Positions 41,650 through 55,852 of a stretch of DNA of 64,000 nucleotides are shown here, in pieces. This DNA comes from Thermincola carboxydiphila (GTDB lineage Bacteria > Bacillota > Thermincolia > Thermincolales > UBA2595), in the NCBI GenBank assembly GCA_016841325.1, contig JAENZJ010000021.1:1-64000 (forward strand), written 5' to 3'. The notes under the pieces are model-generated. The model was not told the origin of the DNA. It saw only the letters and a list, made by a program, of their open reading frames with translations, and searched no databases. Both the position numbers and the translations under genes were made by a program. How positions within the stretch are numbered: the first letter of the stretch is position 1; each line of letters opens with the position of its first letter.

Positions 41650-43359
<1,710 letters not shown>

Positions 43360-43563
43360 CTACCTTGAAGAAGTCGAGTTGATTTCCGTGGGTTTATATG
43401 AACTATCTGATAACTTTGAAAGGGTTTTTGCGTTGACTGTAATCAGTCGTTTCAGCTTGGAATATACACTTTCCTTTGCTGAATCACTTACTCGTGATTC
43501 CACCACATAGACCGTACCTCCGATATCGGATTTGGTTGTGCGGCTGTTATTTTGGTTTTCCAT
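43360..43563 (-). CDS. TnpW-like transposon protein
   Basis: 67 residues from ATG 43563, preceded by ATAGGAGGTCACGAT. Residues IGGTVYVVESRVSDSAKE and KLKRLITVNAKTLSKLS match the small TnpW-type proteins encoded beside TnpX-like recombinases. The role is unproven. It lies 57 bp upstream of the recombinase gene, on the same strand. Confidence 0.75.
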   Translation of the reverse strand: MENQNNSRTTKSDIGGTVYVVESRVSDSAKESVYSKLKRLITVNAKTLSKLSDSSYKPTEINSTSSR

Positions 43564-43638
43564 ATCGTGACCTCCTATCCGATGTTTTGAAGGAACTGGC
43601 ACTGAACCGAATCAATGATCCAGTGCCTAATCCATTTT

Positions 43639-44538
43639 TTAAGCTTTTATTTGTAATATTTTCAGAGCATCCGGTTGAATTAGCTTGCCATCCAATCTCT
43701 CGTAAGCAGAAAAGCCAATTTGCCCCTGCAATGCATATAATTCACTTAATTTCTTTATTGTTATTGGTTGACGCTCAATCAGCCAGTAATAAGATAAATC
43801 TCCGAATACTATGCTTTTTGCTCCTGCTGATACTGTAGGCATATATGGAGAGGTAACTACAGGCTTTCCGAAGATGGTGTTATCTGAAGAATTCCACAGA
43901 TAACTGCCGCTTGTATCCTTAAGGGTTCTAAGAAGCATGGCTGTATTATCGTGCATGATAAATACAGCGTTATTTCGGTATTCATCTTTTAATGAAAAGT
44001 ACAGAGAGATAATCTCATCAAAAGAGATAGTAGCACTATCTGCTGTAGTTACATCTGCGTCTGCCGTAAGTATACCTGTTGGCTGAGTTGTGCCATTTCC
44101 ATTAAGCAATGCATTTTCCTCAGCCTTGCCAAAACGCTTCGCAAAATCACCCATCAGATATTTTTCAAGATTAAAGTTCATATCGGTGACGAATGAGCGG
44201 TTTAGCTTGACAAGAGATGCCAGCTTGTATGATTTCACCAGAAACTGTGTAAATGTATCGGCGCTTTCGGGGATTGGATCTCCGTCTTCAACCCAATCTG
44301 CTGTACCCGTTGAGGATACCGCTTGAATTTTACCTTCTGCAGAAGATAGATTGATAACAGTAGCAAATCTGCGGAATATATTTTCCTTTGCCAAAGCAGT
44401 GTTAAAGCCTTCTCTGAACTCATCTGGTGCGACATAGGCTCCTACATTATCAAAGCCCTCGCTTAGATTTTGATTGTTTTCTTCTTTTCCTTTCATAACA
44501 TTCCAAAACGCTCTATTATAAGTTGTTGATGTTGCCAT
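43639..44538 (-). CDS. HK97-fold major capsid protein (short form)
   Basis: 299 residues. The sequence starts near what would be the mature part of an HK97-type capsid protein. NVGAYVAPDEFREGFNTAL, LASLVKLNRSFVTDMNFN, AFAKRFGKAEENALLNGNGT-type helix text and FGKPVVTSPYMPTVSAGAKS are typical of the family. There is no N-terminal delta/scaffold domain. No protease, portal or terminase gene is near, so it cannot make a phage particle alone. It could form small capsids or encapsulate element DNA with helper functions (inference). TAGGAGGTAAACGATT precedes ATG 44538. Confidence 0.88.
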   Translation of the reverse strand: MATSTTYNRAFWNVMKGKEENNQNLSEGFDNVGAYVAPDEFREGFNTALAKENIFRRFATVINLSSAEGKIQAVSSTGTADWVEDGDPIPESADTFTQFLVKSYKLASLVKLNRSFVTDMNFNLEKYLMGDFAKRFGKAEENALLNGNGTTQPTGILTADADVTTADSATISFDEIISLYFSLKDEYRNNAVFIMHDNTAMLLRTLKDTSGSYLWNSSDNTIFGKPVVTSPYMPTVSAGAKSIVFGDLSYYWLIERQPITIKKLSELYALQGQIGFSAYERLDGKLIQPDALKILQIKA

Positions 44539-44709
44539 AATCGTTTACCTCCTAAATTAAAATGGATTGTGGGGTATATACCCCGTTTGAAACCGCGTTT
44601 TTTTATGCGTTGCCCCACGCCCGTTGTCCAGATGAAAAGGTGTGGAGATTTGACCTCCCCTAGGGGCTGGTATTAACACATAGGGTTGTTTCCAGTGGTC
44701 TTAAGCTTT

Positions 44710-44785
44710 GTAGCAAGATGTCGCAGGTAAAAACTAAACTCTCTATACGAGAGCAATTTTTTATATAACCTGTTTTTCTTGCTAC
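44710..44785. repeat. Nested inverted repeat between the capsid and primase genes
   Basis: GTAGCAAGA...CAGGT (44710-44728) is mirrored by ACCTG...TCTTGCTAC (44768-44785), with CTCTC/GAGAG inside. GCTAC then recurs at 44781 and 44791. It lies just downstream of the primase-helicase stop codon and could be a terminator, replication origin or packaging site. A GGGGTATATACCCC palindrome is at about 44573-44586. Confidence 0.6.
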
Positions 44786-44802
44786 AAGCTGCTACACTGT
44801 GT

Positions 44803-47127
44803 TTAAATAAGAAGAAATTCTTCTTCTGTCAGCTTATATCCGATAAGCATTGTGGTCATTCCACCACCAGAACGTGGTCGTTTCCGTTCTACACGGGCGA
44901 TAGCTGTTAATGCTTGTTTGAAGTTTCTTGCATTCTCCGAATAACATCCATTGGCACTGCACCAACGCTGATACCGGGCATACACTTCGGATGTCCGCAC
45001 CTCACTGTTAGGACTTTCCTCCAAGGTGTCCTCGAAAAATAATGCTATTTTATCGCTGTCACGTTTATAAGCCTCCGTTGCTGTCTTAACGGAATCAGGT
45101 AAAGTCAAGCCTTCCTTTTTTAACAACTGATAGCCTTCAATTAGCCAGTTGAGGATAGCACTCTGATTCTTCGGTTTGGCGAATTCACGTTTTAGGTTTT
45201 TATCCTGCTCGCTTTCATCAAAGTGTCGTTCAAAAGGGATAATAACCACTCTGCCACTGGAAAACAGCGTCATATCCGTAATAACGGGCAGATAATTGGT
45301 GTTGATATACAGCTTAAACTTTGGCGAAAAGTCAAAAGAATTCTCATGTAGAAACCTTGCGTTGATGGTGTCACCACCCGTCATGCTTTTTACCTGTGCA
45401 GCATTTAGGACAAGTCCTCTGCTAGGCTCGGAGATATTTACATAGCGTACTCCTGCAAGCCGGGCAATATCTTCACTTGGACTTGAACTGTTATTGTTCT
45501 TTTTCAGACTGATAGTCTCTGGCCTTGCGGTACAGCCATAACTGCCTAATACCTTAAGAATGCTCTCGCATAGCGTACCTTTTCCGTTTCGAGTTGTAGC
45601 ACCATAGAGAACAAACAGGCATTCATACCGAGTGTCTCCGCTGATACTGTAGCCAAAGGCTTTTTGGAGGAATTTTGCCTTTTCCTCATCTCCGCTCATA
45701 ATCTCATGAATAAATCTATTCCATCGCTCGCTTTTTGCTTCTGGGTCATATTTAACGCCAGATATCTTTGTAAGTCTGTCCTCGCTGTTGTGGGGATGAA
45801 AATCCATGGATATTAAAAACAAGGTTCCATTGGAACAGTTGAGCATAAGCGGGTCTTGGTCAAATTCAGTCATTGATATGGGATATACGCTCTGCGCATC
45901 CTTAAGCACCGTTTCCCTGTATCTTCTTGACTGCCACTTTCGGCAATAGTCAATGTATGCCTTTCTTTGATGTTCATCCTGAATAGTCAAAGCATAGGTT
46001 AGTAGTTGGTTAGCCAATGATTTACACATTTCCATTACTTTTAGATTACCGACATCAGGAATCCAAATACCATTCTCGTAGCAAAACCACATCTTCCTTT
46101 CGGGAACAAAGCGAGCATAAGATTTATAATAATCAGCAAACAGCCTGCTTGCCCCAATATCCGTCCAAGGGTAGCGATCGTTACTCTCAGGCTTAAAATC
46201 AGCAAGGGAACATTCACCAAAATCTTCTGTAGCTGATGAATGTATACCACCTGGTTTATATATTTCAGTAGCATTTGCGATAGCTTTTTCTATGGTTATC
46301 ATTCCATAAGTACTGCCAGACTGCGGTCTATTCCATTTATCTCGCATTAGGCCGCTCTGCCGGAAAAGTCTGTCCATCTGTCCAATATCCCTGCCACACC
46401 AAAATGCCAGCATACCGCAAAGTGCTAAATCAGCTTCACTGGCAGAAGCATAGCCTGATGTATCCCCTTGCCATAACGCTTTGAACCTTTCTCCGTTTGC
46501 CGATTTTAATGCCTTCTCAATAACAGACTTGTCGGACAGATAGGATTGGCTTTCTGTATCCAGTAGTTGCTTCACAGGGGTAGGACGTAGCATATACTTG
46601 TCTAGTATCATCTGAAGCTCATTCGATTTCTCCGGTATATCACCATCTACAAATACATTGCCTGTTACGGTAACAAAGCGGTTTGTTGCTCTAGCCACAT
46701 AGACCTCAACTCCCAGCTTTCTGTTGTTGATATAGTATTTTGTTTTGTCAAAGTCATAGCCAGTGGCCTTAAAGAAAATATGCAACCCTTTCCCAGATGG
46801 ACTGTGTTCCATATAGCAACCACTAAAAACATCTACAACAATTTGGGCAATAGGCTTAAGCTTATCACCACTGTCAAAGCAATCATCTAAGTCGATAACA
46901 CAGATGTCATTACCTACCAAAAATCCGATACCGTCATAATCACTTATAGCAGCTGCTGCCGAACTAAAATCTAAAAATGTACTCCGCTGATCTGCTTTTG
47001 CCCTTTTTCTTGTTACTGGGTTATAGGGAACTTTGGTTTTTCTGCCACTTCGCTCTTCATATTTCCAACAGCAAAACTGAGGATTATCTTTAAGCATCTG
47101 CGGCAAGTTCTCATATTGTGTTTTCAG
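44803..47127 (-). CDS. P4-type primase-helicase (phage/plasmid replication protein)
   Basis: About 774 residues. The N-terminal primase-polymerase-like part contains GIGFLVGNDICVIDLDDCFD (acidic catalytic residues) and EHSPSGKGLHIFFK. A D5N-like linker covers about 330-470. The SF3 helicase has Walker A in YGATTRNGKGTLCE (about 509), and a C-terminal winged helix follows. It should start replication of the excised element. AAGGAGGTGA is placed six bases before a CTG codon (47127) that follows an in-frame TAA. CTG is therefore the likely start, giving MKTQYENLPQM; the first usual codon is TTG 47106, about 30 bases from the site. Confidence 0.88.
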   Translation of the reverse strand: MKTQYENLPQMLKDNPQFCCWKYEERSGRKTKVPYNPVTRKRAKADQRSTFLDFSSAAAAISDYDGIGFLVGNDICVIDLDDCFDSGDKLKPIAQIVVDVFSGCYMEHSPSGKGLHIFFKATGYDFDKTKYYINNRKLGVEVYVARATNRFVTVTGNVFVDGDIPEKSNELQMILDKYMLRPTPVKQLLDTESQSYLSDKSVIEKALKSANGERFKALWQGDTSGYASASEADLALCGMLAFWCGRDIGQMDRLFRQSGLMRDKWNRPQSGSTYGMITIEKAIANATEIYKPGGIHSSATEDFGECSLADFKPESNDRYPWTDIGASRLFADYYKSYARFVPERKMWFCYENGIWIPDVGNLKVMEMCKSLANQLLTYALTIQDEHQRKAYIDYCRKWQSRRYRETVLKDAQSVYPISMTEFDQDPLMLNCSNGTLFLISMDFHPHNSEDRLTKISGVKYDPEAKSERWNRFIHEIMSGDEEKAKFLQKAFGYSISGDTRYECLFVLYGATTRNGKGTLCESILKVLGSYGCTARPETISLKKNNNSSSPSEDIARLAGVRYVNISEPSRGLVLNAAQVKSMTGGDTINARFLHENSFDFSPKFKLYINTNYLPVITDMTLFSSGRVVIIPFERHFDESEQDKNLKREFAKPKNQSAILNWLIEGYQLLKKEGLTLPDSVKTATEAYKRDSDKIALFFEDTLEESPNSEVRTSEVYARYQRWCSANGCYSENARNFKQALTAIARVERKRPRSGGGMTTMLIGYKLTEEEFLLI

Positions 47128-47519: not shown

Positions 47520-47709
47520 GATATTTAGTTTAAGAAGGCTGAAATGCCTTAGCTTTGGATGTTTCAATTAGAGTTTCCGACTTTTTTGTCTAAAAGTATT
47601 TATTTGAATAAAGCAAAAGAGAAGGGCATACACAACCATTATTATTTTTGTTAACATTGTATGTTTTCTTCATAAATACAGAGTTATGATGTTATTTTTG
47701 AAGAAAATG

Positions 47710-47718
47710 TGCTATAAT
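47710..47718 (+). promoter_or_regulatory. Extended -10 promoter of the Cro/CI gene
   Basis: TGC followed by TATAAT (47713-47718), 30 bp before ATG 47749. No good -35 hexamer is present, which is common for extended -10 promoters. Confidence 0.6.
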
Positions 47719-47748
47719 GGAAAAAACAAATATAAAGAGGTGACCAAG

Positions 47749-47964
47749 ATGACCGTTAGCTATAAAAAGCTTTGGAAATTGTTGATAGACCGCGATATGA
47801 AGAAGAAAGATTTACAAGCTACTGCGGGAATAAGTCCATCGTCAATTTCAAAGCTTTCAAAAAACGAATATGTCAGTATGGACGTTCTTGTAAAGGTTTG
47901 TACGGCACTTGGCGTTGATTTTAAAGATATCATGGAATTAGTGCCTGAGGAAAAGAAAGAGTAG
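47749..47964 (+). CDS. Cro/CI family (XRE) transcriptional regulator
   Basis: 71 residues from ATG 47749, behind AAAGAGGTGACCAAG; 21 upstream codons are open but lack a site. It is one HTH_3/HTH_26 domain: LWKLLIDRDMKKKDLQATAG, then ISPSSISKLSKNEYVSMDVL and VCTALGVDFKDIMELV. This class represses element genes. It sits between the divergent primase and defence-like operons, 96 bp before the latter, and may control both (inference). Confidence 0.88.
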   Translation: MTVSYKKLWKLLIDRDMKKKDLQATAGISPSSISKLSKNEYVSMDVLVKVCTALGVDFKDIMELVPEEKKE

Positions 47965-48060: not shown

Positions 48061-50916
48061 ATGGAAGAAGCGACAAGAAGTCTTGCATCAGTAGTAAGCA
48101 ATGTTGATTTTTCTTCATATAAAACAAAGAACGATTCCCTTCTAATTTGTGAAGTGTATAAAGATGGGATATTTAATAATTTTAATAGATTCTGTTACAC
48201 TAATAATTTTCAACGAATGGGTGACCTTAAAAATTTTGATTTTACTTCTTTATTTGATATCAAAGGTTTTGGAAAAGTACGGGTAAACAGAATTATTGAA
48301 AGATATAATTCTATCATGTTTGAAGATAATTTAGTTTTTGAAGGTAATCAAGCTAACAATACCACTGTTTTTATATCAATGGATGATGCAATAGATACCG
48401 TCTATAATGAAAATAAGTACAATATTTTTAGGAAGTTTTGTTCTGATAATGGATTTTTGACCATAGCCGATTTAAAACATTTAGATTTTGACATCTTGTT
48501 AGATGTAGATGGTATTGGGGTAGGAAAACTCTCTCAGATAAAAAATAAATACACAGAGATTATGCTGAGTAACGAAGAAACGCAGCTAACTCAAACATCA
48601 AACACCAACGAACATGCGAAAACGCAAAAATATCATATCCATGCTGATTACTTTGGCATTGACATATCTTTTGCTTACGAAGAAAAAATTTGTGAGGCTC
48701 TACGAAAAAGGAATATTAAATTTATTTCTGATATTGCAAATATCTCAACATACGACTTTGAAAATATTACAGGAATGGGCAAAAAGCGTATTGCCGAGGC
48801 ATTAGAAAAAGCTAAGCTATTTGAACAGCCTATTGAGGAGTTTGTTTCATCTTCACTTGCTCAAATTCGTAATAAAGATGAATATCAGTGCTACCGTGAG
48901 GTCGTATACAATAAAAAAACCCTTGAGCAAGTTGGAATTGAGTACGGACTAACAAGGGAAAGAATACGTCAAAAGAAAAATAAGATAGAAAAATATGCTT
49001 TTCCAATCATTAACCTTTTTGTAGAGGTATTGATGAAAAGTGGTATACTTGATAACATAATAACTTTTGATTTTGAATATTTGTCAGGATTGATTGGGTC
49101 TTATGACAGTGCTACATTTGCTAAAGACATATTAGCTAATTGTGAGATGAGGCATATAAAATATTCTGCAGATTTTGAGTTGTTTTTTGTTAACAAAAAT
49201 CCAGAAGAGATAAAAACAAAGCTTAGAAATATTACCTTAAAACTTGGAAATGTCTTTTCGTTTGTTGATAAAATGGAACTAGTCGAGAAGATGTTGAAGG
49301 AAGAAAATGTTTCTTTTATCGATGTATTTTCTTTTCCAGACTATTTGGCTTACTTTGGTTATAAAAAATATAAGGATTATTACATTAAAGGACGAGTTTC
49401 TCTTGGTTGTATAGCAGAAATTGTTATGCAGAAATATTTTAATAATGGAATTCAAAATACAACAGAAGATATTGCAAAATTAAGAGGATATATAGATAAG
49501 GAATTTGGCATTAGGCTTTCTGAAGAAGATAATGACAGAAATTTATGGGTTATATTAGAAAGAAACAACAGTAACATTATACTTTGGGGAAAGAGCAAAA
49601 AAATACACATTGAACATGTTATTGTTAGCGATTCTTTATTAGAGAAAATAAAAGATAGAGTTGCATTAGAGCTGACAACTACCCCATCAATATCTTCTGA
49701 TTACATATTTGAACAGGTAAAGCCTTTGTTACAAATCACTTGTAGTAATATCTACTGTAAAGAAGCTTTATACGGGGTCCTTCAGTATTATTTTTCAGAT
49801 TTATTTATATTCAAAAAACTGACTATTAAGGCGACTGGAAACAACGAAAATACTCAAAAAATGCTTGAAGATTATATTTATGAACAAGGAGGGTCTGTTT
49901 CTACGGCATCTGCTAAAGAACATTTCTCTAGATGGACTTCCATCATGCTCAATGCTGCCATTAACTTAAATAAGAATATATTGGCTTGGGAAAATGGTGA
50001 AAACTTAATTTTAGCTTCTGCTTTGCAGTTGTCCGATAGGTTTGTCTCAGAATTTCAACAAAAGATAGATGATAGCTTTATTAATGGATATACAAATGGC
50101 TATATGATTGCAAAAAATGCACGGGTATTACTGCTAAAACATCAAATTAAAGATGATGTGATTTCTGTATATTCATTGGCAAAGCATCTTTTCCCTGAAA
50201 AATATTTCTTTACAAGGAGGCCGCATATTTTACAGAAATATGCAGAAAAGCAGTTTACGTCTGTTGATCTTATACTTATGCTTTACAAGAACAAATCTAT
50301 TATTAGCTATGGAGAAATGAAAGAACGATTGATAAACGATTTTGCTATGGATGAAGTCATGGCTGGGAACAACATTGCAAAGGCAATTCCCTACCTCTTC
50401 CAAACTGACATTGATCAATATTCCCTGCCCAACTACGTTACATATCGTCAAGAAGATGTAATGGATTGTATTGCATATGTTGATAAGTATATTTCCTTAA
50501 GAGGTTATATTATCCTTTCTGAAATAGATAAATCAGATTTGTATCGAAAGTCAATTGATGTTCTGGACATACGCATTCCAATTAATTCGTATATTGTAAA
50601 ATCGATAATCTTAAAAGAATACCCGGCAAAATATAGGTTTATTGGAAGAAAAAATTATGATTGGCGATATGATAACTTAATAATTGTTTCAATTTCATCA
50701 CCAATAATTACCTTTACTGACGCCATTATTCATTTGCTAACTAATGAATTTACAGATAAAGAAAATTTTATTCTTTCAAAAATCGAACAATTTTTGCGTG
50801 AAAAGGAATTAATCGTAAATAAAATACCAGATGAGTTTTTTTCATCAGAAAAAATAATTATTGACGAATATGAACGAGTTTTTATTCGAGAGGAGGATCA
50901 GGATGAGGTCGTTTAA
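48061..50916 (+). CDS. Large protein with RNAP alpha-CTD-like repeats and sigma-70 region 4-like segment
   Basis: 951 residues from ATG 48061 behind AAGGAG (48045-48050). Three repeats of about 50 residues resemble the helix-hairpin-helix alpha-CTD of RNA polymerase: LKNFDFTSLFDIKGFGKVRV (about 60-85), LKHLDFDILLDVDGIGVGKL (about 145-170) and ISTYDFENITGMGKKRIAEA (about 225-250). Next, TLEQVGIEYGLTRERIRQKK (about 285-310) is a sigma-70 region 4-type helix-turn-helix. The last ~630 residues are helical and unrecognised; I see no nuclease, ATPase or methylase motif. First gene of a five-gene operon; its end overlaps the next gene by 14 bp. It probably recognises DNA or RNA polymerase for the system (inference). 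Confidence 0.75.
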   Translation: MEEATRSLASVVSNVDFSSYKTKNDSLLICEVYKDGIFNNFNRFCYTNNFQRMGDLKNFDFTSLFDIKGFGKVRVNRIIERYNSIMFEDNLVFEGNQANNTTVFISMDDAIDTVYNENKYNIFRKFCSDNGFLTIADLKHLDFDILLDVDGIGVGKLSQIKNKYTEIMLSNEETQLTQTSNTNEHAKTQKYHIHADYFGIDISFAYEEKICEALRKRNIKFISDIANISTYDFENITGMGKKRIAEALEKAKLFEQPIEEFVSSSLAQIRNKDEYQCYREVVYNKKTLEQVGIEYGLTRERIRQKKNKIEKYAFPIINLFVEVLMKSGILDNIITFDFEYLSGLIGSYDSATFAKDILANCEMRHIKYSADFELFFVNKNPEEIKTKLRNITLKLGNVFSFVDKMELVEKMLKEENVSFIDVFSFPDYLAYFGYKKYKDYYIKGRVSLGCIAEIVMQKYFNNGIQNTTEDIAKLRGYIDKEFGIRLSEEDNDRNLWVILERNNSNIILWGKSKKIHIEHVIVSDSLLEKIKDRVALELTTTPSISSDYIFEQVKPLLQITCSNIYCKEALYGVLQYYFSDLFIFKKLTIKATGNNENTQKMLEDYIYEQGGSVSTASAKEHFSRWTSIMLNAAINLNKNILAWENGENLILASALQLSDRFVSEFQQKIDDSFINGYTNGYMIAKNARVLLLKHQIKDDVISVYSLAKHLFPEKYFFTRRPHILQKYAEKQFTSVDLILMLYKNKSIISYGEMKERLINDFAMDEVMAGNNIAKAIPYLFQTDIDQYSLPNYVTYRQEDVMDCIAYVDKYISLRGYIILSEIDKSDLYRKSIDVLDIRIPINSYIVKSIILKEYPAKYRFIGRKNYDWRYDNLIIVSISSPIITFTDAIIHLLTNEFTDKENFILSKIEQFLREKELIVNKIPDEFFSSEKIIIDEYERVFIREEDQDEVV

Positions 50917-53008
50917 AGATATGAACATAAAACTTATATACGATACCTCTACATCGAATATTGTTGATGAGCTAATAGTTCCCTTATTAGCTCGTTCTAA
51001 AAAGTATTACCGAGGAGTCGGGTACTTCTCTTCTGCATGGTTAGGATTGACGTTTAAGGGTATACAACAATTTGTCTTGAACAATGGACGGATGCAATTA
51101 TTGACTTCTCCACAATTAAATGACGAAGACTGGAATGCAATCGTAAATGGTGAAAAAGCAAAAACTGATGAAGTTATATATAAATCGATTTGCAAATCCA
51201 TCAACGATTTTGACACCACTACAAAAAAAGATGTCTTGAATATGTTATCTTGGCTCATCGCAGATGGATTCCTCGATATAAAATTTGTGGTTTGCAAAAA
51301 TATTGTTGGGAATTATCACGATAAAATTGCTGTTTTTGAAGACTGTAAAGGAAATAAAATTTGTTTGCACGGGTCTCTTAACGATTCATTACAAGCTACT
51401 TATAATGGCGAATGTGTCTCTGTGTTTAAGAGCTGGGTAAATGGGCAAGTAGAGTATTTGGAAGGGCATTTCGAGAATTTTTGTGAGTTATATAACAATA
51501 AAAATGGCTATTTCGAAGTTTATGATATTCCTAATATGCTAAAAGAAGAGCTGAAGAAATATCAATCCTCAGAGAGACCTTACCTCATTGAAAATAAGAA
51601 GCGAGAAACAATTCATCTGCCTGAGTATATTAAGGAATTGCATGATTATCAAAATGAAGCTATCAAGAACTTAATAGCAAACGATTGGCATGGGATATTT
51701 GAAATGGCAACGGGAACCGGCAAAACAATTACTGCTATCGAAGCTACTAGAATATATATAGAAATGAACAAGCGAGCACTTATAATTGTTATTGTCCCTT
51801 TTTCTCATTTGATAACCCAATGGGAGAAAGTATTGCTAGACTTTGGTTATCAGAACATAGTATGTTGCTATAAAAGGACAAAAACTTGGTTACCAGAAGC
51901 AAAAAGGGCAGTGAAGAATTTTAATGCGAAGTTGCAGGATGTGGCTTGCCTTGTAACAACATATAAAACCGCTTCATCAGATGATTTTGTTACTATGGTA
52001 CAGAGCGTGAACTCTGATGCCTTTTTAATCGCTGATGAATGCCACTATATTGGTAGCACTATATACTCTAGAGTCATGGTGAAAAATATCAACGTGCGAC
52101 TGGGATTATCAGCTACCCCGGATAGATGGCTTGATGATGAAGGTACGCATAAGCTAAGAGACTATTTTGGAAAGATAGTTTTCGAGTATGATCTCCGGAC
52201 TGCTATTGAAAATAAGTTTTTGACACCATACGAGTATCATCCCATAATAGTACATTTGAATACTCAAGAACTCGAGGAGTATGAAGAATTAAGTAAAAAA
52301 ATAAGTCGAATCGTTAGTATTAATAAGGAAATTGAAAAAGGGTCTGCTGCTGAAATTTTACTTATAAAACGGGCCTCCATTATATCCCAAGCAGAGAGCA
52401 AGAAGGAAACATTAAAAGCAATTTTAACAAAACAAGTTCATAATAAGTGCATTAAACATACACTGTTTTACTGCGCCAAGGGTGAAAGTAAGCAAATCAT
52501 ACGCCTTCTAGCTGACTTAAATATTAAGGCACACGAATTTGTCTACGATGTTAGCTCCAATAAAAGGGAGGAGTTGCTCTTGCAATTTGATCGAGGTGAT
52601 ATACAGGCTTTGGTTGCAATTAAATGCTTAGATGAAGGAGTGGACGTCCCAAGCACACAAATAGCTTATTTTTTAGCCAGCACTTCTAACCCTCGAGAAT
52701 TTATACAACGTCGGGGAAGGATTTTAAGAAGGTCAAAGAACAAAAGCAAAGCCTGCCTTTATGACTTCATCGTAATGCCGGAAATACAACAAAATACTTT
52801 GGATGATGACATGGTGAAGATATATAAGAGTATTATTTCAAAAGAACTTCCCCGTTTTGCTGAGTTTTCTTATAACTCTGAAAATAAATATGAAGCTCAT
52901 GACACTTTACGTCCATACCTGCGTTCAATGGGTTTGGAATATTTAATGGATTTATTGCCTCACGAAATTTATCAAGTACTTTATAATATAGAATTTTCCA
53001 AGACATAA
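50903..53008 (+). CDS. PLD-family nuclease / SF2 helicase fusion
   Basis: 701 residues from ATG 50903, behind AGGAGG; the ATG lies inside the end of the upstream gene. Residues 1-190 are a phospholipase-D-like domain with GVGYFSSAWLGL and the catalytic half-site YHDKIAVFED...GSLNDS (about 137-160), as in PLD-type nucleases. Residues about 240-650 are an SF2 helicase: MATGTGKTITA (I, about 270), VTTYKTA, DECHYIG (II, about 377), LGLSATPDRW (III) and FIQRRGRILRRSKNK (VI). It could unwind and cut invading DNA. DISARM and Mokosh also pair PLD and helicase modules, but with different layouts. Confidence 0.88.
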   Translation: MRSFKDMNIKLIYDTSTSNIVDELIVPLLARSKKYYRGVGYFSSAWLGLTFKGIQQFVLNNGRMQLLTSPQLNDEDWNAIVNGEKAKTDEVIYKSICKSINDFDTTTKKDVLNMLSWLIADGFLDIKFVVCKNIVGNYHDKIAVFEDCKGNKICLHGSLNDSLQATYNGECVSVFKSWVNGQVEYLEGHFENFCELYNNKNGYFEVYDIPNMLKEELKKYQSSERPYLIENKKRETIHLPEYIKELHDYQNEAIKNLIANDWHGIFEMATGTGKTITAIEATRIYIEMNKRALIIVIVPFSHLITQWEKVLLDFGYQNIVCCYKRTKTWLPEAKRAVKNFNAKLQDVACLVTTYKTASSDDFVTMVQSVNSDAFLIADECHYIGSTIYSRVMVKNINVRLGLSATPDRWLDDEGTHKLRDYFGKIVFEYDLRTAIENKFLTPYEYHPIIVHLNTQELEEYEELSKKISRIVSINKEIEKGSAAEILLIKRASIISQAESKKETLKAILTKQVHNKCIKHTLFYCAKGESKQIIRLLADLNIKAHEFVYDVSSNKREELLLQFDRGDIQALVAIKCLDEGVDVPSTQIAYFLASTSNPREFIQRRGRILRRSKNKSKACLYDFIVMPEIQQNTLDDDMVKIYKSIISKELPRFAEFSYNSENKYEAHDTLRPYLRSMGLEYLMDLLPHEIYQVLYNIEFSKT

Positions 53009-53023
53009 AGGAGGGTGAAACTG

Positions 53024-53200
53024 ATGAGTAAAATTAATGTAGACCTTATTAAGGAAATCGAAAACCGAGCAGATAGTAAGATTATTCAAAAGATTGCTAT
53101 TGAGATACTAAATCAAATTAGCAACGACTCGTCTGATGAACATTTAAAGAATGTAATTAAACGGCGAGTAGATATCGCGGTAAGGGAGGAAGAAAAATGA
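53024..53200 (+). CDS. Small helical protein of the defence-like operon
   Basis: 58 residues from ATG 53024, 16 bp after the helicase stop and behind AAGGAGGG. It is charged and predicted all-helical (VDLIKEIENRADSKIIQKIA, EHLKNVIKRRVDIAV), without a recognised domain. The stop overlaps the ATPase start (ATGA), so translation is coupled. It may be an assembly or adaptor subunit of the ATPase (inference). Confidence 0.7.
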   Translation: MSKINVDLIKEIENRADSKIIQKIAIEILNQISNDSSDEHLKNVIKRRVDIAVREEEK

Positions 53201-55245
53201 GACTTTGCTCGATGACTTTAGAGAATTTCAGGCAGTTTTATGGTAAGCAACATATTGACTTCACTGACGATGAGCAAAATATAACTGTTATTTTGGGGGA
53301 AAATGGCAACGGGAAAACAGGAATTTTTAGAGCCATTATATTTTGCTTATTTAACGAGAAGGAATTGCCAAATGATCGTAAAGATCGGGGGGCAGACCCC
53401 AATAAAGTCCATCTTGTAAATTTGAATGTTTTACAAGAAAATATAGGCATACCTACTGACGCAAGGGTTGAGTTAACCTTTATACATGGAGGGAAAAAAT
53501 ACATTTTGGAACGTTCTGTTTATGACATGATGACCGATACTGGTGAAATTAGAAGGAACTTGGAAGTTGAAGTGAAATTGTTAATCCAAAATGAGGACGG
53601 TAACGTCGAAAGTGTCTTGACAAAAGAAAGTGATGTTGCAAAAAAAATAAACGATATAATCAATAACCGAGTTAAGGATCTGTTTTTCTTTGACGGTGAT
53701 AAAATTGAGGCTTTGTCCACAACGAATGCAAATTCTCGCGAAGAAATAAAGAATGGGATTATGAGATTACTTCAGATTGATTCTATCAAACGGGCCATTG
53801 ATATTACTTCTCGTCTTAAATCTGATCAACACCGTATCATAAAAGCTAAAGCTGACACCAAACTTCGTGTCAAGGAAGAAGAGTTGGAGCAATTAAAACA
53901 AGAATTGGCCTCCGATCAAGAAGCCTTAGATACTAAGCGTTCGGAGTTGGAGCGTGTCCGTACAACCATAGCAGACTATGAGCATGAACAACAAGAGAAT
54001 GCATCAATCAAGGAGCTTTTTGAACAAAGAGCAAGTGTACTGGAAAACAAGAAAAAAACTGAAAAAATAATTGATGACATGCGCACGGCTATTGACAGTA
54101 TTGTTTCCAAATACGGACATAGCCTTTTATTGCAAGAGACAATACTGCATACACGTTCTTTTATCGAGCAAGAGGAGCGTATGAATTCCTACCATAGCGG
54201 TATAACTTCTGACTTAATTAATGACATTATTGGCTCAGGTAAGTGTATTTGTGAAAGACCATTTGAGATTGGTGATGAAACTTATCTTAAATTACAGGAA
54301 TTAAAGCGTAGATATGAAAAAATGAGATTATCTGATTTTCTTAAGGATTTTAAGCGCAATTTAAAATTGTCCCTTTCCTTTGGAGATGATATAGATGTTT
54401 ATATACAAAGTACTTTAAAAGATTATTTCACCCAGCTTAATGAGCTCGAAAAGTTGAGAAAACAGCTTGATGAAATTGACTTGAAGAAAAACGAGTTTAG
54501 TCAAAGAGAGGATAGGTTAAAAGGTATTGAAATCAGTCTTCAGCGTTGCAAGCAAGATGCAGAGTCTTTGAATAAGTCTATCGCTGTCCTTGAATATGAG
54601 ATTGCATCAAAGTTGCAGAAAATCGACAAACAAGAACAAGAGGTAAAGGAACTTCGCAAGAAAGACAAAGAACTTCAGCATGATAATAATGTATTAGAAT
54701 ACTACGAAAAACTCCTTGATCTATTTACATCTATAAGAGATACATATAGTGGCAAAATGAGAGCTCGTCTATCTGAGGAATCAACAGAGATATTTGAACA
54801 GCTGATTTCTGAGAAGGACAAGCAGGTCTTAAGTCAGATCATAATAAATGAACAATACGAAATACAGGCAAAAGGTTGGAATGATATATCTATTTTTCAA
54901 GACATATCTTCAGGGCAGAAACAAATGTTATCCCTATCTTTTGTTGCTGCATTAGCTAGGGTTGCCGCTGGCGCTAATGGTAAGATTATAGATATGCCAT
55001 TATTTATGGATACACCATTTGCAAAACTTGATGGCAACAACCGGGACAACCTTATTATGAATATGCCAAAACTAACTTCTCAATGGATACTGTTGGTGAC
55101 AGATACTGAATTTGCACGCAAAGAAGTGAACCAAATGAAAGCAACGCATAGATGGAAAAAACTCTATCATTTAGATAAAATTGGAAATGGATACACCCAA
55201 ATCGTACCCATTAAAGATATTAATGCTTTTGCAGCAAGTAGATAG
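53197..55245 (+). CDS. DndD-like SMC/Rad50-type ATPase
   Basis: 682 residues. Walker A is GENGNGKTGIFRAIIF (about 32-47), and FFFDGDKIEAL (about 160) is a hallmark of DndD proteins. Two coiled-coil arms (about 200-300 and 400-510) flank a hinge with GKCICERPFEIG (about 349), a partial zinc-hook-like CxC. ABC signature SSGQKQMLSLSF (about 570) and Walker B PLFMDTPFAKLD (about 600) complete the head. DndD works with DndB/C/E in DNA phosphorothioation; SMC-like ATPases of this type also serve other defence systems. No Dnd modification gene is in the window. The start overlaps the preceding stop by 4 bp. Confidence 0.9.
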   Translation: MRLCSMTLENFRQFYGKQHIDFTDDEQNITVILGENGNGKTGIFRAIIFCLFNEKELPNDRKDRGADPNKVHLVNLNVLQENIGIPTDARVELTFIHGGKKYILERSVYDMMTDTGEIRRNLEVEVKLLIQNEDGNVESVLTKESDVAKKINDIINNRVKDLFFFDGDKIEALSTTNANSREEIKNGIMRLLQIDSIKRAIDITSRLKSDQHRIIKAKADTKLRVKEEELEQLKQELASDQEALDTKRSELERVRTTIADYEHEQQENASIKELFEQRASVLENKKKTEKIIDDMRTAIDSIVSKYGHSLLLQETILHTRSFIEQEERMNSYHSGITSDLINDIIGSGKCICERPFEIGDETYLKLQELKRRYEKMRLSDFLKDFKRNLKLSLSFGDDIDVYIQSTLKDYFTQLNELEKLRKQLDEIDLKKNEFSQREDRLKGIEISLQRCKQDAESLNKSIAVLEYEIASKLQKIDKQEQEVKELRKKDKELQHDNNVLEYYEKLLDLFTSIRDTYSGKMRARLSEESTEIFEQLISEKDKQVLSQIIINEQYEIQAKGWNDISIFQDISSGQKQMLSLSFVAALARVAAGANGKIIDMPLFMDTPFAKLDGNNRDNLIMNMPKLTSQWILLVTDTEFARKEVNQMKATHRWKKLYHLDKIGNGYTQIVPIKDINAFAASR

Positions 55246-55255
55246 GAGGATAGCA

Positions 55256-55732
55256 ATGATTAAATATTCTGCAATAAAGGAAAAAGATAGTTATAAAGTT
55301 AATGTGGATAAGCGCTATGATGATTTATATGATGTTTTAACCGGAAGAACGAGCAAATGCAAGGTCTTTGATAATCAAATAAGCTTATTTATTTTCGCTG
55401 CATCTATCGGACATAAAAGAAAAATAGCAAAAGATATCATCCAACAAAGTGATAATGCAATACATTGCCAACCTATTAGTGAAGAGCAGTTAGCAACACT
55501 GTTTTCTATAATGGTTTCAGATGAAAATCTCGGTGGAGATCTGAATTATTTTCTTGATAATGAATACTTGTCAAAAGGGCTCAGGTTAGCTGAGAAATAT
55601 GCTCAGGCTGGTATGGAAGTGCTCTGTGATGAGGTTTTTGAGGATCGCTGGAATGGCTCGACATTAAGTAAAGAGTATTCTGATTACGGCGCCGATTTAC
55701 TTAGATTTATTTATACCGAGCGCAATTTCTAG
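55256..55732 (+). CDS. Small protein resembling phosphorothioation-associated proteins
   Basis: 158 residues from ATG 55256, behind AGGAGGATAGCA and 10 bp after the ATPase stop. The central segment KVFDNQISLFIFAASIGHKRK resembles the 'FaAsiGy+++' run of a small protein family found beside dnd genes (dnd-associated protein 4 type). That match is from memory of the family pattern and is not tested. The rest is helical and acidic. Last gene of the operon, followed by a strong terminator. Confidence 0.65.
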   Translation: MIKYSAIKEKDSYKVNVDKRYDDLYDVLTGRTSKCKVFDNQISLFIFAASIGHKRKIAKDIIQQSDNAIHCQPISEEQLATLFSIMVSDENLGGDLNYFLDNEYLSKGLRLAEKYAQAGMEVLCDEVFEDRWNGSTLSKEYSDYGADLLRFIYTERNF

Positions 55733-55773: not shown

Positions 55774-55820
55774 AAGCCAAGCCATGTAAGCAATATGTTA
55801 AACAAGGCTTGGCTTTTTTT
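55774..55820 (+). terminator. Terminator of the defence-like operon
   Basis: AAGCCAAGCC (55774-55783) and GGCTTGGCTT (55806-55815) form a perfect 10-bp stem, followed by TTTTT. Confidence 0.88.
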
Positions 55821-55852
55821 GCTCCGCTTGAAGCTGTTCAGTTAAGTTTTAT

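What the first reader, a model, noticed from the sequence alone, without database searches (positions are those of the whole stretch)
48061..55732. Candidate undescribed defence system: alpha-CTD/sigma-like protein, PLD-helicase, small protein, DndD-like ATPase, dnd-associated-type protein
Five plus-strand genes with 4-14 bp overlaps or gaps of 16 bp or less form one transcript ending at a strong terminator, inside an AT-rich mobile element. The PLD-nuclease/SF2-helicase fusion and the DndD-like ATPase (FFFDGDKIEAL, Walker A/B, SSGQ) are classic defence parts. The usual phosphorothioation genes (DndA/B/C/E) and DndFGH are not seen in the window. The lead gene has three RNAP alpha-CTD-like repeats and a sigma region-4-like helix-turn-helix, a combination I do not associate with any named system. 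Gene order and domains do not match DISARM, Mokosh, Lamassu, Zorya or Wadjet as I know them.
Basis: partly seen in the sequence, partly recalled or inferred. Interest (0 to 1): 0.92.

Follow-up and report, generated by a model that had tools for sequence, protein, structure and literature searches.

The report
Five-gene Pbe defence operon with promoter-reader
Four of these five genes are a known but poorly understood bacterial anti-virus cassette (PbeABCD), and the fifth, leading gene is a large, apparently undescribed DNA-binding protein carrying the part of sigma factors that reads promoters; it recurs in front of this cassette in many bacteria and also in front of a different defence system (type-4 BREX).

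Summary
In detail: five intact, tightly coupled plus-strand genes (48061-55732), each with a ribosome-binding site, end at a strong terminator inside an AT-rich element. The claim of an undescribed system is only partly right. Genes 2-5 are PbeABCD, the CxC-ABC-ATPase/DndE-type module: PbeA E=5e-225, PbeC E=8e-174 with the diagnostic CxC, a PbeB-size small ORF and a PbeD. Solitary PbeABCD is published. What appears new is gene 1 (g1): three HhH/alpha-CTD-like units, a primary-sigma region 4 and about eight predicted tandem winged helices. Relatives (12-22% identity) sit within 8 bp of, or overlap, pbeA in 21 of 101 sampled Pbe loci from several phyla; two more lead type-4 BREX operons. The family's most conserved stretch is the -35-reading helix TRERxRQ. 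The host genome (99% complete) has no DndC and no PAPS-reductase-family protein, although the characterised PbeABCD needs phosphorothioation. Most likely g1 is an integral DNA-recognition subunit giving this Pbe subtype a promoter-type target. Position, conservation and missing phosphorothioation genes are shown; the mechanism is inferred. In other clades g1 accompanies Dnd-linked Pbe, so it is not simply a substitute for the modification.

The parts
48061..50916 (+). g1: lead gene, 951 aa from ATG (958 aa from TTG 48040): HhH/alpha-CTD-like units, sigma region 4, tandem winged helices
48166..48819 (+). three HhH/alpha-CTD-like units of g1 (about residues 43-93, 114-186, 215-260)
   Evidence: Pfam HHH_5 2.2e-7, RNA_pol_A_CTD 7.5e-5; AF2 secondary structure; coordinates
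48832..49038 (+). sigma-region-4 helix-turn-helix of g1 (residues 265-333); -35-recognition helix LTRERIRQ at 48949-48972
   Evidence: family profile vs PDB sigma region 4 4e-20; most conserved stretch of the family
49057..50889 (+). array of about eight predicted winged-helix units of g1 (residues 340-950)
   Evidence: AF2, most blocks pLDDT 75-93; Foldseek best matches are tandem winged-helix proteins
50903..53008 (+). pbeA: PLD (HKD) nuclease fused to SF2 helicase; HKD motif 51317-51382, Walker A 51704-51727, DECH 52031-52048
   Evidence: PADLOC PbeA 5.1e-225; TIGR04095 6e-143; motifs
53024..53200 (+). pbeB-like small gene, 58 aa (61 aa from GTG 53015)
   Evidence: size and position between pbeA and pbeC as in other Pbe loci; no sequence match of its own
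53197..55245 (+). pbeC: DndD-like ABC ATPase with CxC hook; Walker A 53296-53319, KCIC 54241-54252, SSGQ 54907-54918, Walker B 54994-55020
   Evidence: PADLOC PbeC 7.8e-174 vs DndD 1e-54; CxC; coordinates
55256..55732 (+). pbeD: 158 aa, dnd_assoc_4 family, proposed DndE cognate
   Evidence: TIGR04062 9.4e-8, below cut-off; position; weak DndE similarity
55774..55822 (+). intrinsic terminator
   Evidence: (-23.1 kcal/mol, z -3.98) with T tract

Best explanation
This is a PbeABCD (CxC ABC-ATPase/DndE-type) anti-invader system of a subtype with an integral fifth subunit, g1. By published proposals PbeC and PbeD form an ATP-driven DNA-scanning pair, PbeA is the nuclease-helicase effector and PbeB a small regulator. 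I propose that g1 is a DNA-recognition subunit: its sigma-region-4 module reads -35-like promoter elements and its HhH and winged-helix array grips the adjoining DNA, so that the complex is loaded on, or licensed by, promoter-type DNA. That could let this subtype act where no phosphorothioation (PT) exists, as in this genome. Shown: gene identities, coupling, conservation of the fifth gene and of the sigma helix, absence of PT genes. Inferred: DNA binding, promoter targeting, complex formation and antiviral activity.
For: PbeA/PbeC identity and CxC. g1 directly upstream of pbeA in 21 of 101 Pbe loci over several phyla, -56 to +8 bp. In 398 genomes of the phylum, 5 of 8 full-length g1 copies are before pbeA and 2 before brxP. 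The -35-recognition helix is the most conserved stretch, 3.36 vs mean 1.31 bits per column; PDB sigma region 4 match 4e-20. Tandem winged-helix array. No DndC or PF01507 protein in the genome, while PF01507 rings in all 14 control genomes.
Against: g1 also occurs with Dnd-linked Pbe (8 of 20 genomes), and PT-free Pbe loci without g1 exist, so it is neither specific to nor required for PT-free Pbe. Most Pbe loci lack it. No binding, complex or phage data exist. In AF2 the domain packing is undefined (pTM 0.42). The 101-locus sample was drawn by similarity to PbeA of this type, so 21% is not a population frequency.
Confidence: 0.5

Rival explanations
1. g1 is only a transcription regulator: a promoter-binding protein that controls the operon's expression and takes no part in recognising or attacking invaders.
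For: It is always the first gene, and alpha-CTD-like plus sigma-region-4 modules are typical promoter-binding parts. Sigma-70 factors also occur beside SspABCD-PbeABCD loci.
Against: It is very large (739-1378 aa) with a long winged-helix array, and is translationally coupled to pbeA, where a regulator made in equal amounts is unusual. The element already has a small HTH regulator just upstream.
Confidence: 0.25
2. g1 docks on RNA polymerase through its region-4 fold (beta-flap contact) and couples Pbe to transcription, or senses phage takeover of the polymerase, rather than reading -35 DNA itself.
For: Region 4 of primary sigma factors binds both the -35 DNA and the RNAP beta-flap (general knowledge); region-4 homology is strong.
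Against: The strongest conservation falls on the DNA-contacting helix T305-Q311. No RNAP-contact test was possible.
Confidence: 0.15
3. This copy is an orphan PbeABCD that lost its phosphorothioation partner and is inactive.
For: Archaeal PbeABCD had no activity without PT (PMC6459918), and this genome has no DndC or PF01507 protein. Xiong et al. raised inactivity for solitary pbeAC.
Against: All five ORFs are intact with good ribosome-binding sites. All 12 genomes of the two PbeA clades concerned lack DndC, including a closed genome, so this is not a recent loss in one strain.
Confidence: 0.1

Closest known systems
DndCDEA-PbeABCD of Haloterrigena jeotgali and the 'solitary pbeAC' loci (Xiong 2019, PMC6459918)
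   Same: Same four genes in the same order; small second gene (66 aa there, 58 here) and 152/158-aa fourth gene
   Different: There PT genes are adjacent and needed; no g1-like gene is described; here no PT genes exist in the genome and g1 leads the operon
CxC ABC-ATPase-DndE anchored systems (PMC10853773)
   Same: HKD-SF2 helicase, small protein, CxC ABC ATPase and DndE-type protein
   Different: Described partners are Dnd genes, methylases and MTaX1; no sigma-4/winged-helix lead protein is mentioned in the main text
Type-4 (phosphorothioation-based) BREX (PMC12839542)
   Same: A g1-family protein leads BrxP-BrxC-PglZ-BrxL operons L008 and L009
   Different: Different enzymatic core; the paper's type-4 section does not mention the lead gene
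PglW of type-2 BREX (PMC12839542)
   Same: alpha-CTD-like domain followed by several winged helices; relative L056 matches PglW at 7e-11 over that segment
   Different: PglW has nuclease and kinase domains and no described sigma region 4; g1 has no detected enzymatic domain
MzaA of the MZA system
   Same: Sigma-region-4 segment (g1 relatives match it there at up to 1e-9)
   Different: Similarity is limited to that segment; window g1 matches only 20 residues; the rest of the operon's best matches are Pbe

Membership tests
PbeABCD / CxC ABC-ATPase-DndE system | PbeA: HKD nuclease fused to SF2 helicase | tested here: met
   PADLOC PbeA 5.1e-225; HKD and helicase motifs
PbeABCD / CxC ABC-ATPase-DndE system | PbeC: DndD-like ABC ATPase with CxC hook | tested here: met
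   7.8e-174 vs DndD 1e-54; KCIC; CxC in 84/88 PbeC, 0/16 DndD-like
PbeABCD / CxC ABC-ATPase-DndE system | PbeB: small fast-evolving protein between pbeA and pbeC | tested here: met
   58-aa ORF in place; by size and position only
PbeABCD / CxC ABC-ATPase-DndE system | PbeD: DndE-like protein | tested here: inconclusive
   dnd_assoc_4 9.4e-8, below cut-off; hhalign to DndE E 0.00093, probability 22%; DndE chains prominent in Foldseek but E>1
DndABCDE phosphorothioation (partner of characterised PbeABCD) | DndC sulfurtransferase in the genome | tested here: not met
   No TIGR03183 and no PF01507 match in a 99%-complete genome
PbeABCD / CxC ABC-ATPase-DndE system | Antiviral activity | not testable with these tools
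   needs plaque assays
BREX type 4 | BrxP, BrxC, PglZ, BrxL | tested here: not met
   No BrxP in this genome beyond short weak matches; only g1 is shared
Sigma-70 family sigma factor (for g1) | Region 2 (-10 recognition) as well as region 4 | tested here: not met
   Pfam finds region 4 but no region 2 in g1 or scanned relatives
DISARM, Zorya, Lamassu, Wadjet, Mokosh | PADLOC marker proteins as best match | tested here: not met
   Best matches are PbeA and PbeC; only 25 of 65 families were shown for PbeC

The most novel reading that the evidence does not exclude
g1 defines a family of promoter-reading immune sensors. Its sigma-region-4 helix lets Pbe (and some type-4 BREX) machines find or license targets through -35-like elements, so a PbeABCD system can discriminate invaders without DNA phosphorothioation, by reading promoters or transcription state instead of a chemical mark.
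Probability: 0.25. Interest if true: 0.85.

Novelty: new variant of a known kind. Interest (0 to 1): 0.55.

Why it matters
How Pbe/CxC systems tell self from non-self, and why many occur without modification genes, is open: published proposals disagree on whether they cleave DNA and what they sense (PMC6459918, PMC10853773). A conserved extra subunit with a near-invariant -35-recognition helix gives a concrete test (point mutants at R306/E307/Q311, ChIP-seq, plaque assay). The same lead protein in front of type-4 BREX hints at a module exchanged between two defence systems.

Tried and rejected
A genome-contig scan with gene 1 alone found no relative, and plasmid and phage tblastn found none: the protein is too divergent, so I went through PbeA. 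Searching 398 genomes with the g1 profile hit nearly every genome through ordinary sigma factors; only matches reaching far beyond region 4 were counted. I first read a 1200-aa upstream gene in other Pbe loci as methyltransferase-associated; in the locus scanned it is SspC of a full SspABCD set, so the script label 'mt1200' is a misnomer. That g1 replaces the PT module is weakened by DndC in 8 of 20 g1-Pbe genomes and by PT-free Pbe loci without g1. Short g1-profile hits (360-435 aa) downstream of PbeD are sigma-70 factors judging by the member scanned, not g1 relatives; a 493-aa hit before BrxP in L210 also looks like RpoD. No direct repeat marking the element's ends was found. Promoter-like matches in the region are no more than in shuffles, so no operon promoter is claimed. 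The viral-contig scan found few full PbeA relatives.

Full report
What is there. Five intact plus-strand genes lie at 48061-50916, 50903-53008, 53024-53200, 53197-55245 and 55256-55732, with GGAGG-type ribosome-binding sites, 14- and 4-bp overlaps and 15- and 10-bp gaps. A terminator hairpin (55774-55815, -23.1 kcal/mol, z -4.0) with a T tract follows. GC falls to 30-36%. Next to the operon on the minus strand are a large serine recombinase (41650-43302), an HK97-type capsid gene (43639-44538) and a D5/NrS-1-type primase-helicase (44803-47106), and on the plus strand an HTH regulator (47686-47964). This looks like a small capsid-bearing mobile element or prophage remnant with the operon as cargo; no end repeats were found.

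Genes 2-5 are PbeABCD. Gene 2 matches PADLOC PbeA at 5e-225 and TIGR04095 at 6e-143 (477 bits, below that model's 600-bit cut-off); gene 4 matches PbeC at 8e-174, well ahead of DndD at 1e-54. Gene 4 has KCIC at the hook position; CxC occurs in 84 of 88 PbeC-position relatives and in none of 16 DndD-like proteins on the opposite strand of the same loci, which is the published distinction between the two clades (PMC10853773). Gene 3 has the size and place of PbeB. Gene 5 fits PbeD (dnd_assoc_4, 9e-8, below cut-off); its link to DndE is suggestive only: hhalign E 0.00093 with probability 22%, and DndE crystal chains prominent in Foldseek but at non-significant E. Xiong et al. already reported 320 of 553 pbeAC pairs without Dnd genes.

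The lead gene (g1). Profile matches are HHH_5 2e-7, and alpha-CTD 7.5e-5 and sigma-70 region 4 1.2e-4, the latter two just below cut-off; PADLOC has nothing. A PbeA scan of about 85,000 species genomes gave 80 loci, which with loci from genomes of the same phylum and the window make 101 Pbe loci with a usable PbeA. In 21 (two of them the same Bacillus genome) a g1-family protein lies directly upstream of pbeA, -56 to +8 bp away. The hosts span Bacillota, Actinomycetota, Pseudomonadota and Thermodesulfobacteriota. On the PbeA tree the label needs 5 changes (4 forced by strongly supported branches) against 19 in shuffles; the window sits in an all-g1 clade of 8 (SH-aLRT 99). In an evenly drawn sample of 398 genomes of the phylum, I count 8 full-length g1 relatives in 7 genomes: 5 before pbeA, 2 before brxP of type-4 BREX operons (L008 and L009, BrxP-BrxC-PglZ-BrxL), 1 alone. 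Other type-4 BREX operons have different large upstream proteins, two with weak g1 similarity (L208, L209) and one with HARE-HTH (L214).

Anatomy of g1. AlphaFold2 with 17 sequences gives mean pLDDT 77.6, mostly 72-93 beyond residue 260, but pTM 0.42, so domain packing is unknown. The C-terminal two thirds read as about eight winged-helix units (my count from the secondary structure); the best PDB fold matches are tandem winged-helix proteins (UFL1 6.5e-6; SelB fragment at non-significant E). The family profile matches region 4 of primary sigma factors at 4e-20. Although members share only 12-22% identity with the window protein, the stretch T305-R-E-R-x-R-Q311 is the most conserved of the protein (3.36 bits per column against a mean of 1.31; sequences). 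It corresponds to E. coli sigma-70 residues 583-589, which include the residues that contact the -35 element (general knowledge). Sigma region 2 is not found, so g1 is not itself a sigma factor. No enzymatic domain was detected.

Phosphorothioation. The characterised PbeABCD is inactive without PT (DndA C344S; PMC6459918). This genome (3.43 Mb, 99% complete) has no DndC and no PF01507 protein at all, while that family rings in all 14 control genomes. Of 20 g1-Pbe genomes searched, 12 lack DndC: window, G026, G320 (closed), G394, G177 and the genomes of L062, L063, L064, L065, L069, L072, L076. These are exactly the window's 8-row clade and one Bacillota clade of the PbeA tree. Eight have DndC: the roseobacters, the actinobacteria and one Christensenella. 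Two of the 12 carry BrxP-size PAPS proteins in trans. PT-free Pbe loci without g1 exist as well. So g1 is compatible with both modes and is not simply a replacement for the mark.

Interpretation. Tight coupling over several phyla, survival of the five-gene order under great sequence divergence, and reuse before type-4 BREX argue that g1 is an integral subunit. Its parts are DNA-binding modules and its constraint falls on the -35-reading helix, so target recognition or licensing at promoter-like DNA is the most economical role; operon regulation and RNAP docking are the main rivals. None of this has been tested at the bench. The main-text passages of PMC6459918, PMC10853773 and PMC12839542 that I searched do not describe such a protein, but supplements and papers outside the library were not readable, so novelty is provisional.

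Score. The finding is a new variant of a known kind: the core is known, the fifth subunit appears not to be, and it makes a direct test possible.

Noticed in passing
L048:15254-16354; similar hits in L050/L105, L095, L109, L115, L118, L119, L120, L127, L130, L137, L140, L141: A sigma-70-type factor (L048 copy: regions 1.1, 2 and 4) lies just downstream of pbeD, same strand, in about 13 Pbe loci of various phyla, mostly of the Ssp-linked group; possibly a dedicated sigma factor.
   Followed up: partly
L053:3001-15361 and similar loci (script group 'mt1200'): A complete SspABCD phosphorothioation set (SspD, SspB, SspC, SspA) directly upstream of PbeABCD, confirmed in L053 and with the same gene sizes in many other loci: a Ssp-Pbe pairing that the papers read here do not describe.
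   Followed up: partly
L044:14986-17043; L056:3352-4836; L063:6194-7618; L064:8940-10382; L065:14801-16183: Radical-SAM-like genes directly downstream of pbeD in five DndC-free g1-Pbe loci (weak Pfam matches in some); absent from the window.
   Followed up: partly
L010:2512-7655; L044:3738-5945; L055:15011-17374: Further PLD-SF2 helicase genes (PADLOC mREase_IV-like) a little upstream of g1 in three g1-Pbe loci.
   Followed up: no
L220:7449-9164 and L011:730-2460: A 571-576-aa protein with four alpha-CTD domains plus sigma region 4 (L220) beside a DUF4855 protein and a DnaE-type polymerase in two genomes of one genus.
   Followed up: partly
window 41650-47106: Large serine recombinase (with DUF4368), lone HK97-type capsid gene and D5/NrS-1-type primase on the minus strand: a small capsid-bearing mobile element, phage satellite or prophage remnant.
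   Followed up: partly
L208:9997-12201, L209:9726-12284, L214:5356-6963, L212:10009-12183, L215:5021-7414, L217:4710-6101: Large uncharacterised proteins directly upstream of BrxP in type-4 BREX operons; two weakly g1-like, one with HARE-HTH.
   Followed up: partly
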